From Candidatus Altimarinota bacterium (lineage in GTDB: Bacteria > Patescibacteriota > Gracilibacteria > BD1-5 > UBA6164): DNA of 48,200 bases. Made by a program: the position numbers and the translations under genes. Shown here one piece after another: positions 165-34,025 of this stretch (position 1 is its first letter; each line of letters starts with the position of its first letter). Location of the stretch: positions 1 to 48,200 of the forward strand of contig JAUZRO010000147.1 of NCBI GenBank assembly GCA_030950465.1. Reading direction: 5' to 3'. The notes beneath the pieces are model-generated. The model made no database searches, was not told where the DNA came from, and saw only the letters and a program-made list of their open reading frames with translations.

Positions 165-362
165 TTATCTTTTATTAATTATTTCTTTTTTTATAACACT
201 TAAAAAATCATTTGCTTCCATATCAACAACAGTATCATTCCATCATTCTCAATCCATATTAATTAATCTTTCTTCCATAGTTAAATCTTTATATTTTACT
301 ATTTTATAAGAAAGAAATTTTTGTGCTATAATATTAGGAACATCTACACTAATAACAGTCAT
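165..362 (-). CDS. Small antitoxin of the RelBE-like pair
   Basis: A 65-aa protein starting MTVISVDVPNIIAQ, with TAA at 167-165. The first ~12 residues look like the strand of a ribbon-helix-helix DNA-binding antitoxin and the remainder is acidic and helical (MEERLINMDGEGWNDTVVDM), as expected for a toxin-wrapping tail. It sits directly upstream of the RelE-like toxin, three bases apart, and behind a consensus promoter at 395-422. The name rests mainly on position and size; I do not recognise a precise antitoxin family. Confidence 0.7.
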
Positions 363-507: not shown

Positions 508-1023
508 CTATAATTCTAATTCATTTAATTCTAAATTTATATTTTTCATAATTTTCTGATTTTTTGATAATTGATGGTAACTTGTATAAGGAAAATTTTC
601 TATATTTTTGACTATATTATGTTTTACAGGATTAAAAGAAACATAAGCTAAACATTTGTATAAATAATCTTCATTATCAATATAAATTGATTTAAATCTT
701 CATTCAAAAAACACTTGTTTATATTCAATAGGATATTTAACCCTATGCCAAGTTGCATAAGCTCATTGTAATCTTTTCATAAAATTAGAAATATCATCAC
801 TATTATCTCAGATATTATGAAAAACAAAATGAAAATGGTTTGGCAATAAGCAATATGCAGAAATTTTTATAGAACTGAAATCTTTAAGAATACTAAAGAT
901 ATAATCATAAAATTTTTTATAACATGTTCTATTATTAAATATTATTTCTTTTTTATATCATCTGTTATAAATATGATAATATCAATCTTTTTTGAATAAA
1001 TCTCTTTTATTTCATTTTCACAT
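508..1023 (-). CDS. REP-associated tyrosine transposase (Y1/IS200-like family)
   Basis: A 171-aa protein beginning MGKGNKRDLFKKDGYYHIYN, where the first glycines are TGA codons. The opening 'YYHIYNRG' strand, the HuH motif in LLPNHFHFVF (about residues 72-81), the following helix with a candidate nucleophilic tyrosine (WAYATWHRV) and the terminal FEGRFKSIYIDNEDYLYKCL-like and VSFNPVKHNIV segments are all classic TnpA-REP features. Length suits the family (150-220 aa). It is expected to nick and join single-stranded REP hairpins; the palindromes on both sides support this. The frame is intact under code 25 and would be broken under the standard code, so the element is adapted to this host lineage. 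Confidence 0.9.
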
Positions 1024-1284: not shown

Positions 1285-1312
1285 TTGATTTTATACTAAA
1301 AATACATACAAT
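1285..1312 (+). promoter_or_regulatory. Promoter of the 26-aa peptide transcript
   Basis: TTGATT (1285-1290), 16-base spacer, TACAAT (1307-1312). The predicted start, near 1319, falls at the base of the hairpin at 1318-1339, so the RNA would begin with a stem-loop. Confidence 0.55.
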
Positions 1313-1317
1313 TATTT

Positions 1318-1339
1318 TGTAGTATCACAAAATACTACA
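1318..1339 (+). promoter_or_regulatory. 5' stem-loop of the peptide mRNA
   Basis: TGTAGTAT (1318-1325) and ATACTACA (1332-1339) are perfect inverted repeats around a six-base loop, directly at the predicted 5' end. Such 5' stems stabilise or silence type I toxin mRNAs; that role is inferred here. Confidence 0.6.
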
Positions 1340-1373
1340 GTAATTTATTTTTCTAACCCAATTATCATGGCTA
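1339..1373 (+). repeat. Direct repeat a, over the peptide start codon
   Basis: Begins AGTAATTTAT and continues through TCTAACCC, CAATTAT and the ATG to GGCTA. The same order of blocks (AGTAATTTAT, TTAACC, CAAT, GCTA) recurs at 1522-1550 within the region covered by the convergent RNA. The first ten bases are identical; the rest is gapped. Confidence 0.6.
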
Positions 1374-1447
1374 AATTAATAGCTTTGTTAGTAGATATAC
1401 TAACAAGTGCTATCTATGACATAATAAAACATTTATTATGATTATAG
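1367..1447 (+). CDS. 26-aa hydrophobic peptide, candidate type I toxin
   Basis: ATG at 1367 opens 26 codons ending in TAG: MAKLIALLVDILTSAIYDII then KHLLGL. It is a single amphipathic or membrane-inserting helix with Lys near each end, in the size range of Fst/Ldr-type toxins. No Shine-Dalgarno sequence is seen. It has its own promoter and a 5' hairpin, and its RNA would end at the terminator 1453-1485. Antisense to its 3' end runs a second predicted transcript. I find no homology-level match to a named toxin family; the call rests on size, hydrophobicity and locus architecture. It could also be a chance frame. Confidence 0.4.
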
Positions 1448-1452
1448 GACAC

Positions 1453-1485
1453 AAAAAAACTACTGTTTCAAGCAGTAGTTTTTTT
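1453..1485. terminator. Bidirectional terminator shared by two convergent RNAs
   Basis: AAAAAAACTACTG and CAGTAGTTTTTTT are perfect inverted repeats around a seven-base loop, giving a T-run on both strands. It ends the peptide mRNA (plus) and the small RNA (minus). Confidence 0.85.
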
Positions 1486-1579
1486 CATAATTTAATAAAT
1501 TAAATTATGCACAAAATTTTTAGTAATTTATCCTTAACCAACAATAGCTACAATAATAACTGTGGGTGTATCCACCTAC
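1455..1579 (-). ncRNA. Predicted small RNA, candidate antitoxin RNA
   Basis: A near-perfect promoter on the minus strand (1614-1586) and the terminator at 1485-1453 define a transcript of about 125 nt with no convincing reading frame. Its 5' part folds into GGTG-GATA-CACC. It is complementary to its own direct repeat (1522-1550), and through repeat a (1339-1373) it could pair in trans with the start-codon region of the peptide mRNA; it is also fully complementary to that mRNA over the shared terminator. This copies the RNA I/RNA II arrangement of the Enterococcus par locus. Function is inferred. Confidence 0.5.
1522..1550 (-). repeat. Direct repeat b, inside the small RNA
   Basis: Starts with the same ten bases as repeat a, AGTAATTTAT, followed by CCTTAACC, CAAT and AGCTA. 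Transcribed leftward it gives the complement of repeat a. Confidence 0.6.
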
Positions 1580-1585
1580 AAAACA

Positions 1586-1614
1586 AGTATACTCAATATA
1601 CAACAAAATGTCAA
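1586..1614 (-). promoter_or_regulatory. Strong promoter of the small RNA
   Basis: On the minus strand TTGACA (1614-1609), 17-base spacer, TATACT (1591-1586): perfect -35, five of six at -10, ideal spacing. No gene follows it before the terminator, so an RNA product is the simplest reading. Confidence 0.75.
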
Positions 1615-1804: not shown

Positions 1805-4800
1805 TTATTTAGAGTAAGAACCTAAAGTAATAATATCATTATTAGAAGATTTGTAAGTAACACCATCAACTTTAAATGATACACCATTTGCTTTAATTTT
1901 TACATTAGAAGCATTAGGAGTTCCAATAATTGCAGCAGTAGTATATAGTGTATAAATATCTCATGAAACAAGTTTATCTTCACCATTATCTTCTACACCA
2001 TCATTATCAGTATCAGTAGTAAGTGTACCAACATTACCATTAACAGTAGTCTCAGCAAGAATACCTGTAGTAAATATAGTTGCATTATTATCATTATCAA
2101 TATTTGCAACACTTGCAACAGCATTATCAAATTCAATACCTGAAATTGTAACATCACTATTATTTAAAACATTATTACCTTTATCAATGTTAAATGTTAA
2201 TTTAGCTTCTGAACCATTAAATCCAAATGATTGAGTAGCAACAACATTAACAATAGCAGGAACAACAGCAACAGCAGTACTATTAACATTTCCAACAAAA
2301 GCAGTAGAAAGAATAACATTATCAGATGAAGCACCTTCAACATCAGCTTCACTTGCTACAGCAGTAACTAAAGCAAGACTAGCAGGAACTGTAAATGCAT
2401 TAACAACAACATCACCTAATACAGCAGAAGTTTCAGAACCATTAGTAGTATATTTTCTAATATCAGCTACAAGAGTACCTTCAATATAGTTTTCACCATC
2501 ATTAACAGTAAAATCTTTAAATTCAATAATAGATTCATTATTAACTGAATCATAAGTAACAACACCTCCATCAGCAATAACAGTTGAACCATCCATTAAT
2601 CTAACATTAGTTAAAGTATCAGAGAAATCTCAAGTAACTGTAGGAGCAACGTTTGTACCAGAAACATTAGTTAATGTAAATGGAGTACCAGGAGTAACAG
2701 CTACAAAACTAATAATATTAGCACCACCTGTAGTTACATTAACAGTAGCATCAACATTAGCAGCAGCAATTAAAGCAGCAATAGTAGTAGTAGAAGTATA
2801 AACAACACCATTAAGAGTTACTGTAGTAATATCTCCAGCAGCCATAGCTCTACCAAAATCTTCATCTTGATCTTGAGCTTGAGCAGCAGTACCAGCATTT
2901 CATTGAGCAATAGCAATACCAACAACAGCATTTGTTCAACCTAAGTTAACACTAGCATCAGTTTCATTAGTATTAGCAGTAGCAGAAGTTGCAACAACAA
3001 CATTTGTAGTTGGAACAGGAGCTGAACTATTACCATCAGCATTGATAGCAGCAGCTATTTTAACAGCAGCTTGAATATCTGTATCAGTTGCAAGAACAGC
3101 AGCAACTACTGTAGCACCATTAATATTTATTTGAATATTTCAAGCAAATACAGGAGCAGTAGAAACTGTTAAAGTAGTAACTTCATTAGCAGCAGGAACA
3201 AGAACAACATTAGCTTGATTTGTTGTTGGAGCAGGAGCCCAAACAGCAGTACCACCAGAAGTAGAAGAAGGAACTTTAATTTTTAATGAATTAACATAAA
3301 TATCTTCTAAATCAGCTTCCATTTTGAATTCAGCAAGAGCAACATCAGTTGTACCAGCTAAAATAACAGAATCTATATCGTCTTTATTATTACCATTATT
3401 AATAATAGCAAATTGGAAAGTACCTTCTGATTTTAAATTAGTTTTAGTTAATTTAGAATTAGCAGAATCTAAAACAACACTATTACCAACAGTAGTAGAA
3501 GCATAAGGAGCAACTTTTAATAAAGCATCTCCATCAGAATTATCAACATCAAAAGTAGTTGTGTCTAATTCAAGAGCTAATATATCATTATTTACAATAT
3601 TATCGTTGTCTTTTAATACAGCAGTAACAATAAGTTCAACATTATCAGAACCAGCAGCAATTGCAGCAGAAATTCCAGTAAAATCAACACTATCATTATC
3701 TATATCAGCAGAAAAAGTTTGACCACCAATATTTAAAGTAGCAGTATCAATAACTTTATCTAAATCTTCATTAGTAGTAGTAGGAGTATCATGAAGACTA
3801 TTATTAGCAGCTAATTTTAAATTAAAATCATTGATAGTAATTGTATCAGCATCTCCTATAGAAATTTTAGCTTTATATAGAACAGTTTCAACACCATTAC
3901 CTATAACTAAATCTCTATCAATAACTGAAACATTAGTAACAGTAATTTTACCAGTTTCAACATCTATGTTTTTATTATCTAAAGCAGTAGAAGAAAGAAT
4001 ACTAGATAATGCAGGTGTTGTAGCACTTGTATAATCTTGATTTTCAATATCATCATTAACCTCAGTAATAGCTACTTGGAAGTTTAATCTAACACCATTT
4101 AATGTATTATCATCTAATATATCAAATGTTAAGTCTAAATCTTTAGCTTCATTAGCTCTTAAAGTAGTATCATCAAAAGTATATACAGCAGTTTGAGTAG
4201 TTTCACCTGTAACTCAATCATCAGATACACCTCCTAATTCAACATTTTCAATTAATTCAGCAATAGTTTTATTTAATGTATTATTACTAGCAGTAACAGT
4301 AACAGTTAATCTTTTAATATCATAATTATCAGTTAAAGCTAATAAGTTTAAAGTACCTGCAACAATATCAGTAGAGTTAGGTCTAGCTTGATCTTGTGTT
4401 CCTTTAGTAAAAGAAACATTAATTTCAGAACCTTCAACTTTCCTAGCTGTAGATAAATCTTCAGAATTATTTGAAAGATCTTGATTATTATCAAAAGCAA
4501 CTGGCATACCAGAAGTAGCACCAATAGCATATACATCATCATTAGATACAAATGTAAAATCTACATCTTTACCAACAGAACCAGCAATAGAACCTTTTAA
4601 TTCAAAAGTAACTCTATCATTAGCAGCTAAAGTATAATCAATAGCCATTACTATTTCTTCATCAAAATTAACAGTAAAAGTAGAATCAACTTTAACACCT
4701 TCAATGTATAATTCTAAGTTAGAAATATCATCTTCATCAATTGTAGAAGTAGATGGTAAATGTAGAGTAATTGTTTTAACAATAATATCTTCATTATCAT

Positions 4801-5995
4801 TTTTTTCTTCAATATCAAATTCAACTAAAGTTTCAGTATCACCAATAGTAATATTTCCACTTTGTTTTTTAGCAGAAACTTTTAATAAAGCAACATTAGC
4901 AAAAACAGCAGGAACTAATAAAGCACCAACTAAGTCTTCACCCATTACATCACTAGAAGCTTGAATATCAACTAATTTAATACCGTAAGTAGAATTATCA
5001 GCACCACCAGTAGTATCTGTAATTTTACCTGCAACAGTTAAAGTCATAGTAGTTCCAGCTTCAACAACAATATTTTTATCAAAAGAAATTTCTCTTTCAA
5101 TTTCAGTAAAGTTTTTAGTTTTAGAAACTTTTTCTCCAATAGAATTATAAATAGAAACTTCATCTAAATTTCTGTAGTCACCTAAACCAATAAAGTTTAA
5201 AGTAGCTTGATTTAGAGTAACATCTTCTGAACCAGCAGTAACATCAAACATTAGTAGAGTAACTCTATTAGTGTTAGCTTGAGCTAATCCATCTGAAGGT
5301 GTTTCTGGGCTTAATGAAACAGTAAGTTCATCATCACCAGAAACAGTAGGTTCGTCTACAGTAGGTTCGTCTACAGTAGGTTCATCTACATCATCTAAAA
5401 GACCATTAAATAATCAACCAAAATCATCATCTTCTTCTTCAATAGTGATAGCTTCAGCAGCCCAAACAAACATAGTTCATCTAGTTGCAGTAGTATCAAA
5501 ATCTGAGAAAACTTCAGCTATACCTGCATCAAATGCAGCAGATACATAACCTGCTTTCCATTCTCCAGAATCTCTAGCTATACCTTTAGCTTGCATAACC
5601 ATTTTTAATGCTTCAATATTAGAAACATTATCATCTGGTCTAAATGTATCATTAGCAGCTATAAAACCAGCTTCCAATGCTACAACAGCATATTTACATG
5701 CCCAATCTGAATCAGCAATATCAGAGAAAGGACTTGTACAAGAACCTTCTGATGCAACTTTATCAGATAATTTAATCATTACTTTCAAAGCTTCTTTTCT
5801 TTGAATAGTGTCAGCTGTTCTATAAGCGCTAGGATTTGTTGAATAATCAACAATAACGTTATTTTCAGCTAATATGTTTGCAGCATTAGTGTTAGACATT
5901 AACGCAGCATTTACTCCAGCAGTAGAACCAGCAGTTGTCAAAACAAGTGCAGAAACTAATACAGCTGAAGTAACTTTTTTAACAAAAGTACTCAT
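1805..5995 (-). CDS. S-layer homology (SLH) domain surface protein, 1396 aa
   Basis: ATG at 5995-5993 and TAA at 1807-1805 enclose one frame whose only interruptions are TGA (glycine). Residues 1-30 form a signal peptide (SAVLVSALVLTTAGS, cleavage near AGVNA-A). Residues ~45-175 are SLH-like: RKEALKVMIKLSD, SPFSDIADSDWACKYAVVAL, NDTFRPDDNVSNIEALKMVM. An acidic linker carries three VDEPT units (5343-5392). The remaining ~1150 residues are Thr/Asn/Ala/Val-rich beta-type sequence with little Lys. Near the C-terminus DTDNDGVEDNGED is a calcium-loop motif. SLH domains bind cell-wall polymer, so it is probably the major surface-layer protein. It stands alone, with its own promoter, a long leader and a terminator. 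Substrate or partner proteins are unknown. Confidence 0.85.
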
Positions 5996-33113: not shown

Positions 33114-34025
33114 TTAAAATTCTATTTTTATACATCTATCTACTCATCAATTATCTTTAAAAATTTTAAAATTTAGTTTCTTTGAATTTAGATAATTAAT
33201 AGCCACTTTTTTTTGATCAAATCATATTTCTATAAATAAAACCACCCCTAGCCCCTCCTTACCAAGAAGGGGAGTAGATAATATTTGTTCAATTAATTTT
33301 TCATATAACTCAAATCATGTTCAGGCTCCTCAATACAGTGCAACTGATGGTTCATGTAAAATTACATCTTTGTCCATATTTAAAAAATCTTCATCTTTTA
33401 TATAGGGAAGGTTAGCTGTAATTATATACTGTGTTATCTCCCCCTTTATAAAAGGGGGATTAAGGGGGATTTTAGATAATAAATCTGATTTTAATAATTT
33501 TATTTTATTTTCTAAATTATGAGTTTTAATATTTTTTCTAGCAACTTTTAATGCATCTTCTGAAATATCTACTGCAAAAGATTTCTTCAAAGGACTAAAA
33601 CCCTCTGTTGACACACTTTTTACAACTGATATTGGAATTGCTCAACTTCATGTTCAAACATCAATATATATAATATTATTCCCCTCTCATGTAAGGGGAA
33701 GGATTAGGGGTGAGGTATTAATTTCTTCAATAGCTTGTTCAACCATCACCTCTGTATCATTTCTTGGAATAAGACATCTTTTGTCTACATAAAAATCTAA
33801 TCCATAAAATTCTGCTTTTTCTAAAACATATTCTATTGGATAACCAAAAACTACTTTTCTGAAAATATTTCTTAATTCTTCTAATTCTTTTTCTGAAATT
33901 TTTAAGTCATCACTTAAAAAAAACTGAGATTTATTTAATCCAGTTTTTTTTAATAAAATTTTTTCTACAATATTAATTTGTAGTCAAAATTTTCTTCATA
34001 TTAATAATAATTCTTGTTTTTTCAT
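33114..34025 (-). CDS. prmC: Peptide chain release factor N5-glutamine methyltransferase PrmC
   Basis: 303 aa. Methylates the GGQ glutamine of release factors. Family landmarks: N-terminal helical domain, YVLEKAEFYGLDFYVDKRCL, LIPRNDTEVMVEQAI, YIDVGTGSGAIPISVV (SAM motif I), FAVDISEDALKVARKNIKTH, ANLPYIKDEDF in the NPPY position, and HEPSVALYGGAGTGFELYEK. Four short repeats are inserted in frame, encoding NTSPLILPLTGEGNN, STEGFSPLKK, KIPLNPPFIKGEITQ and TPLLGKEGLGVV at loop positions between core motifs. The catalytic NPPY reads NLPY here. In a code-25 organism only UAA and UAG need release, so RF1 is the expected substrate. Confidence 0.9.
33241..33277. repeat. In-frame repeat 1 in prmC
   Basis: CCCCTCCTT-acc-AAGAAGGGG palindrome near the C-terminus. 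Its peptide TPLLGKEGLGVV matches the uvrA insert. Confidence 0.75.
33437..33474. repeat. In-frame repeat 2 in prmC
   Basis: CCCCCTTTATAAAAGGGGG followed by ATTAAGGGGGATTTTA. It sits between SDLLS and YIITANLPY, a spot with no extra residues in ordinary PrmC. Confidence 0.8.
33585..33613. repeat. In-frame repeat 3 in prmC
   Basis: On the coding strand TCAACAGAGGGTTTTAGTCC then TTTGAAG, nearly identical to the intergenic palindrome at 26815-26841. Encodes STEGFSPLKK. Confidence 0.75.
33679..33720. repeat. In-frame repeat 4 in prmC
   Basis: CCCCTctcatgtaAGGGG and a neighbouring ATTAGGGGTGAGG, encoding NTSPLILPLTGEGNN just before SAM motif I. Confidence 0.7.

What the first reader, a model, noticed from the sequence alone, without database searches (positions are those of the whole stretch)
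1285..1614. Candidate Fst/par-type type I toxin-antitoxin in a code-25 CPR bacterium
A rightward unit (promoter 1285-1312, 5' stem-loop 1318-1339, 26-codon hydrophobic peptide 1367-1447) and a leftward unit (perfect -35 with TATACT, 1614-1586, no ORF) converge on one perfect bidirectional terminator (1453-1485). A direct repeat is present at 1339-1373, over the peptide start codon, and at 1522-1550, inside the leftward RNA, so the small RNA is complementary to the toxin initiation region in trans. These are the defining parts of the Enterococcus par locus (Fst), here seen together without protein homology. I know of no described type I system in Gracilibacteria.
Basis: partly seen in the sequence, partly recalled or inferred. 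Interest (0 to 1): 0.9.

Follow-up and report, generated by a model that had tools for sequence, protein, structure and literature searches.

The report
Possible RNA-silenced hydrophobic peptide gene
A short stretch of DNA in an uncultured bacterium with a changed genetic code appears to make a 26-residue membrane-type peptide from one strand and, from the other, a small RNA able to cover the peptide's start site; this resembles known 'type I' toxin-antitoxin pairs, but only one copy was found and nothing shows yet that it is expressed or toxic.

Summary
The repeat exceeds chance (p about 0.002-0.02). The ORF's combined hydrophobicity and amphipathicity is unique among 684 small ORFs sampled, and the rightward RNA is strongly folded with a mostly open start region. 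In 504 kb of the same genome no other locus matches the composite. Against it: the rightward promoter (9/12) is at chance level, coding and start-context signals are neutral, there is no expression evidence, and no relative turned up in 147-380 related genomes, plasmids, phages or Rfam, so conservation cannot be tested. It is not an Fst family member: no PXXXG motif, charged tail or SD sequestration, no Pfam or Rfam match. Best reading: a par-like (works like, not a member of) antisense-controlled membrane peptide, probably a type I toxin-antitoxin cassette, in accessory DNA beside a REP-associated transposase, in a TGA=Gly bacterium. Confidence about 0.4; main rival: an independent sRNA beside a chance ORF.

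The parts
1285..1312 (+). putative rightward promoter TTGATT-16-TACAAT
   Evidence: 9/12 match; such sites are expected about 2.3 times per 330 bp, so unproven
1318..1339 (+). 5' stem-loop of the rightward RNA (TGTAGTAT-CACAAA-ATACTACA)
   Evidence: perfect 8-bp stem; only copy in the own genome within 3 mismatches, though other TGTAG...CTACA palindromes are dispersed there
1323..1387 (+). repeat copy a, across the peptide start codon
   Evidence: aligns to 1506-1564, 47 of 66 columns identical; mostly single-stranded in the predicted rightward RNA (1341-1378 mean unpaired probability 0.73)
1367..1447 (+). 26-codon hydrophobic, amphipathic ORF MAKLIALLVDILTSAIYDIIKHLLGL (TGA=Gly at codon 25), candidate toxin
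   Evidence: GRAVY 1.52 and helical moment 0.46, the combination unique among 684 small ORFs; coding score weakly positive (21st of 116 small intergenic ORFs); start context neutral
1379..1447 (+). two strong hairpins inside the ORF RNA
   Evidence: ORF-only fold -24.6 kcal/mol, z -5.2; more stable on + than - but not beyond background asymmetry
1453..1485 (.). shared bidirectional intrinsic terminator AAAAAAACTACTGTTTCAAGCAGTAGTTTTTTT
   Evidence: the + strand loop holds UUCA (YUNR)
1486..1579 (-). body of the putative small antisense RNA (about 127 nt with the terminator), no ORF beyond 13 codons
   Evidence: z of the whole RNA -4.0
1506..1564 (-). repeat copy b inside the leftward RNA, complementary in trans to the peptide start region
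1586..1614 (-). leftward promoter TTGACA-17-TATACT
   Evidence: 11/12; 0.036 expected per 330 bp; same TTTTGACA context as the 12/12 promoter at 422-395

Best explanation
A one-copy, par-like antisense-controlled small-peptide locus, most likely a type I toxin-antitoxin cassette. Inferred working: the rightward RNA (about 1318 to 1485) encodes a 26-residue amphipathic membrane helix and is heavily folded apart from its start region; the leftward RNA (about 1579 to 1453), made from the stronger promoter, is unstable and in excess. It pairs first through the complementary terminator loops, then through the repeat, covering the AUG and blocking ribosome access (this genome hardly uses Shine-Dalgarno sequences, so the start codon region itself is the target). 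If the locus is lost or the small RNA falls, the peptide is made and inserts in the membrane. Shown here: the sequence parts, predicted folds and above-chance complementarity. Inferred: both transcripts, translation, repression, toxicity and role.
For: Parts at the coordinates. Trans complementarity over the start codon above chance. Rightward RNA fold z -8.4 with a mostly open start region. Peptide hydrophobic and amphipathic beyond all other small ORFs sampled. Strong leftward promoter with no real ORF behind it. Composite unique in 504 kb of the genome. Accessory setting: relatives have other genes, mostly FKBP/cyclophilin-like, right after the S-layer-like gene, while here a Y1/RAYT transposase unit and a duplicated terminator lie beside the unit.
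Against: Rightward promoter at chance level. Coding score and start context neutral. No relative of the peptide or of either RNA in 147-380 related genomes, plasmids, phages, Rfam, Pfam, NCBIfam, PHROGs or PDB, so no selection or covariation can be shown. Strand asymmetry of folding is not significant. The genome is rich in dispersed palindromes. All tests are post hoc. No transcript data.
Confidence: 0.4

Rival explanations
1. The leftward unit is an independent small RNA gene (strong promoter, terminator, no ORF) and the rightward ORF is a chance open frame; the similarity of the two flanks is an old partial duplication without function.
For: Leftward promoter 11/12 while the rightward one is at chance; neutral coding score and start context; 10 of 42 bidirectional hairpins have converging promoter-like sites anyway.
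Against: Peptide composition extreme for the genome; complementarity lies over the start codon; strongly folded rightward RNA.
Confidence: 0.35
2. A cluster of palindromes left by REP/RAYT-type or other mobile elements between duplicated terminators; the hairpins are DNA-level debris and the RNA-like anatomy is incidental.
For: RAYT with flanking 59-nt REP copies at 446-504 and 1109-1167; 46-nt terminator duplicated exactly at 1213-1258 and 1718-1763; TGTAG...CTACA palindromes dispersed in the genome, also inside genes.
Against: The hairpins of this unit have no other copy in the genome; the strong promoter, open start region and complementarity are not explained.
Confidence: 0.15
3. An antisense-regulated small membrane peptide that is not a toxin of its own cell (a stress-regulated small membrane protein, or a secreted amphipathic peptide).
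For: Amphipathic 26-residue helix; same anatomy.
Against: No known family match; the accessory, single-copy setting suits an addiction or defence cassette better.
Confidence: 0.1

Closest known systems
par of plasmid pAD1, Enterococcus faecalis (Fst / RNA I / RNA II), and the Fst family
   Same: Convergent RNAs sharing only a bidirectional terminator; repeats that give trans complementarity over the toxin start; small hydrophobic peptide; YUNR in the toxin-RNA terminator loop (features from PMC7472228).
   Different: No PXXXG motif, no charged C-terminal tail, no SD and no SD sequestration by the 5' hairpin; one long degenerate repeat instead of two short ones; no sequence relatedness; TGA=Gly host; longer small RNA (about 127 nt against about 40 nt in PMC7472228).
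TisB/IstR-1 of Escherichia coli
   Same: Short amphipathic, charge-spaced hydrophobic peptide (resemblance from memory, not a test); antitoxin acts in trans from a neighbouring gene without overlapping the ORF.
   Different: IstR-1 is not arranged convergently on a shared terminator (from general knowledge); no family match found.
Bacillus txpA/RatA, bsrG/SR4, yonT/SR6
   Same: Toxin mRNA and antisense RNA overlapping at the 3' end (general knowledge; yonT/SR6 in the abstract of PMC5848175).
   Different: Longer overlap there; here only the 33-bp terminator overlaps, and pairing at the start region is by a repeat.
msoT1/msoA1 of Microcystis aeruginosa (PMC12390103)
   Same: Candidate type I locus outside the phyla in which these systems were known; found de novo without homology.
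   Different: Cis-overlapping antisense search design; different phylum; toxicity of the peptide tested there, not here.

Membership tests
par/Fst family | convergent promoters for toxin RNA and small RNA | tested here: inconclusive
   Leftward 11/12 is above chance, rightward 9/12 is at chance
par/Fst family | shared bidirectional intrinsic terminator | tested here: met
   Perfect A7...T7 hairpin 1453-1485
par/Fst family | direct repeats giving complementarity at the toxin start | tested here: met
   One degenerate repeat, 47/66 columns, p 0.002-0.024; not a pair of short repeats as in par pAD1
par/Fst family | 5' stem-loop sequestering the Shine-Dalgarno sequence | tested here: not met
   No SD; hairpin ends 27 nt before the ATG; start region mostly unpaired
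par/Fst family | toxin with PXXXG(C) motif and charged C-terminal tail | tested here: not met
   Peptide has no proline and ends ...KHLLGL; motif from PMC7472228
par/Fst family | sequence match to Pfam Fst_toxin or an Rfam family | tested here: not met
   No Pfam match; PF13955 has no match in this genome and none over cut-off in 147 relatives, though it was over cut-off in none of the 14 control genomes either; no Rfam family near its gathering score
type I toxin-antitoxin system (general) | small hydrophobic peptide whose expression is toxic | not testable with these tools
   Hydrophobic and amphipathic; toxicity needs an experiment
type I toxin-antitoxin system (general) | antisense RNA from its own promoter, complementary to the toxin mRNA | tested here: inconclusive
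   Predicted promoter, terminator and complementarity; no transcript data
type I toxin-antitoxin system (general) | small RNA prevents toxin translation or destabilises the mRNA | not testable with these tools
   Only predicted pairing over the AUG

The most novel reading that the evidence does not exclude
A functional type I toxin-antitoxin system with a new toxin family in a TGA=Gly bacterium of the candidate phyla radiation, which reached a par-like architecture independently of Fst and works without a Shine-Dalgarno sequence, by covering the bare start-codon region.
Probability: 0.3. Interest if true: 0.78.

Novelty: new variant of a known kind. Interest (0 to 1): 0.5.

Why it matters
A 2025 paper (PMC12390103) states that type I systems were known only from Proteobacteria, Firmicutes and Tenericutes, with its own cyanobacterial locus the first exception, and it blames homology-based searching for the gap. 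A par-like locus without protein homology in a code-25, candidate-phyla bacterium would extend the range a great deal and suggest that the par layout can arise independently. It would also be an example of antisense control of initiation where Shine-Dalgarno sequences are hardly used.

Tried and rejected
Covariance models of both RNAs (R1, R2): only matches within the locus itself, plus hits elsewhere that rest on terminator hairpins.

Idea that the two RNAs share a homologous leader (both start TTTTGTAG + hairpin + ACAGT): p 0.002 by anchored shuffle, but other promoter-like sites in the genome match the rightward leader better, and free local alignment gives p 0.24-0.26: not claimed. Idea that strand asymmetry of folding shows the transcribed strands: 16.5% of background windows are as asymmetric: not claimed. 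Idea that the 5' hairpin belongs to a conserved leader family: the other TGTAG...CTACA sites are dispersed palindromes, some apparently within coding sequence. The 83-codon frame 1196-1447 containing the peptide runs through a terminator and the 5' hairpin and is taken as chance. Naming the organism by genome contigs failed.

Full report
What was checked. The window is the whole of contig 54 of a genome of 1.48 Mb in 278 contigs. TGA is read as glycine there: 117 ORFs of at least 150 codons hold 1882 TGA against 977 GGN codons. The finding lies between an S-layer-like gene on the - strand (1805-5995) and a Y1 transposase gene (508-1023, Pfam Y1_Tnp E 9.5e-9) flanked by two 97% identical 59-nt REP-like copies at 446-504 and 1109-1167, which is the layout of a REP-associated (RAYT) unit.

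The parts. The direct repeat is longer and more degenerate than described: 1323-1387 against 1506-1564, 47 of 66 columns with gaps.

Chance. Promoters of 9/12 are everywhere in this 22% GC sequence (2.3 per 330 bp, both strands), so the rightward promoter is no evidence; 11/12 or better is expected 0.036 times. Of 42 bidirectional hairpins in 504 kb (34% of the genome), 10 have converging promoter-like sites, so that part of the anatomy is common; only the candidate combines an 11/12 promoter, a strongly hydrophobic ATG-started ORF (GRAVY 1.52) and a flank-to-flank duplex of -46 kcal/mol, the one comparable duplex having much longer flanks. The repeat beats dinucleotide shuffles (p 0.012-0.024 by alignment, 0.002 by duplex energy) and random intergenic DNA of the same genome (p 0.003-0.012; duplex 0 of 600; cofold gain -14.4 against -5.6 +/- 2.8, p about 0.007). 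The predicted duplex without the terminators covers the AUG. These are post hoc tests on a chosen locus and should be read as moderate support.

The rightward RNA. It folds at -48.5 kcal/mol, z -8.4; without the terminator z -6.7, below all but 2 of 318 background windows. The structure is a 5' hairpin, a mostly open stretch over the start codon (1341-1378, mean unpaired probability 0.73), two long hairpins within the ORF, and the terminator. The peptide is hydrophobic and amphipathic together, which no other of 684 small ORFs matches. Its codon score is only weakly positive (21st of 116 small intergenic ORFs, several of the best looking like pieces of real genes) and its start context is neutral (20th percentile of genes, 79th of all ATGs). 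Shine-Dalgarno-like sequences are near-absent in this genome (3 of 117 starts), so their lack here is normal, and any antisense block must act on the start region itself.

The leftward RNA. It has a strong promoter, a terminator, a fold of z -4.0 and no ORF apart from a 13-codon GTG frame. As a small RNA candidate it stands on its own.

Relatives. None found. DNA of the unit in 147 relatives, the peptide in 147 relatives and 380 genomes of the phylum, both RNAs as covariance models in 242 and 147 genomes, plasmids and phages, exact patterns in genome and viral contigs, Pfam, NCBIfam, PHROGs, PDB and Rfam gave only the locus itself or terminator hairpins and weak chance-level hits. Searches with a 26-residue query have little power, so absence means only that no close copy exists in what was searched. 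In four relatives of the S-layer-like gene the following DNA holds other genes, mostly FKBP- or cyclophilin-like by eye, and no such unit. Here the S-layer gene's terminator at 1718-1763 is repeated exactly at 1213-1258, so 1-1717 looks like accessory, rearranged DNA, a usual place for toxin-antitoxin cassettes.

Reading. The best explanation is a par-like antisense-controlled membrane peptide, most likely a type I toxin-antitoxin cassette. Shown: parts, predicted folds, complementarity. Inferred: transcription, translation, repression and toxicity. The nearest rival is an independent small RNA next to a chance ORF. Membership in the Fst family fails on tested features: no PXXXG motif, no charged tail, no SD sequestration, no model match; the PF13955 genome search was over cut-off in none of its control genomes, so that one is a weak negative. 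'Works like par' and 'is an Fst locus' must be kept apart.

Novelty. In the open-licence literature searched here no paper joins Gracilibacteria with type I toxin-antitoxin systems, and a 2025 paper describes a cyanobacterial locus as the first outside Proteobacteria, Firmicutes and Tenericutes. If confirmed this would be a new phylum and a new toxin family; as it stands it is a plausible single-copy candidate.

Noticed in passing
508-1023 (-), 446-504, 1109-1167: A complete RAYT-like unit: Y1 transposase gene flanked by two 97% identical 59-nt palindromic REP copies, with a leftward promoter-like site at 1086-1059.
   Followed up: partly
1213-1258 and 1718-1763: The S-layer gene's terminator is duplicated exactly (46 nt), bounding about 460 bp that hold the candidate unit; a related copy occurs elsewhere in the genome (C256). 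Suggests a cassette inserted or duplicated by recombination between terminators.
   Followed up: partly
3-161 (-, near the contig end) and 165-362 (-): Two small adjacent genes behind a perfect TTGACA-16-TATAAT promoter (422-395); their layout and the RelE-like look of the first suggest a type II toxin-antitoxin pair, but neither matches Pfam or NCBIfam.
   Followed up: partly
33114-34025 (-): A PrmC-like methyltransferase gene (by eye) holds three GC-rich palindromes (near 33250, 33440, 33690) that are read in frame as peptides such as IPLNPPFIKGE and STPLLGKEGLGVV, like the in-frame palindromic elements of Rickettsia; one motif (GGGGTGAGG) recurs 17 times in 504 kb.
   Followed up: partly
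own genome: C53:1254-1286, C190:249-281 and 1887-1919, C226:360-392 (L088, L094, L095): A dispersed palindrome family of the form TTTTGTAG-arm-AAAAT(A/T)TT-arm-CTACA with compensating changes in the arms.
   Followed up: no
1640-1700: Palindromes of the form AGACCGGTCTC, a second REP-like family beside the unit.
   Followed up: no
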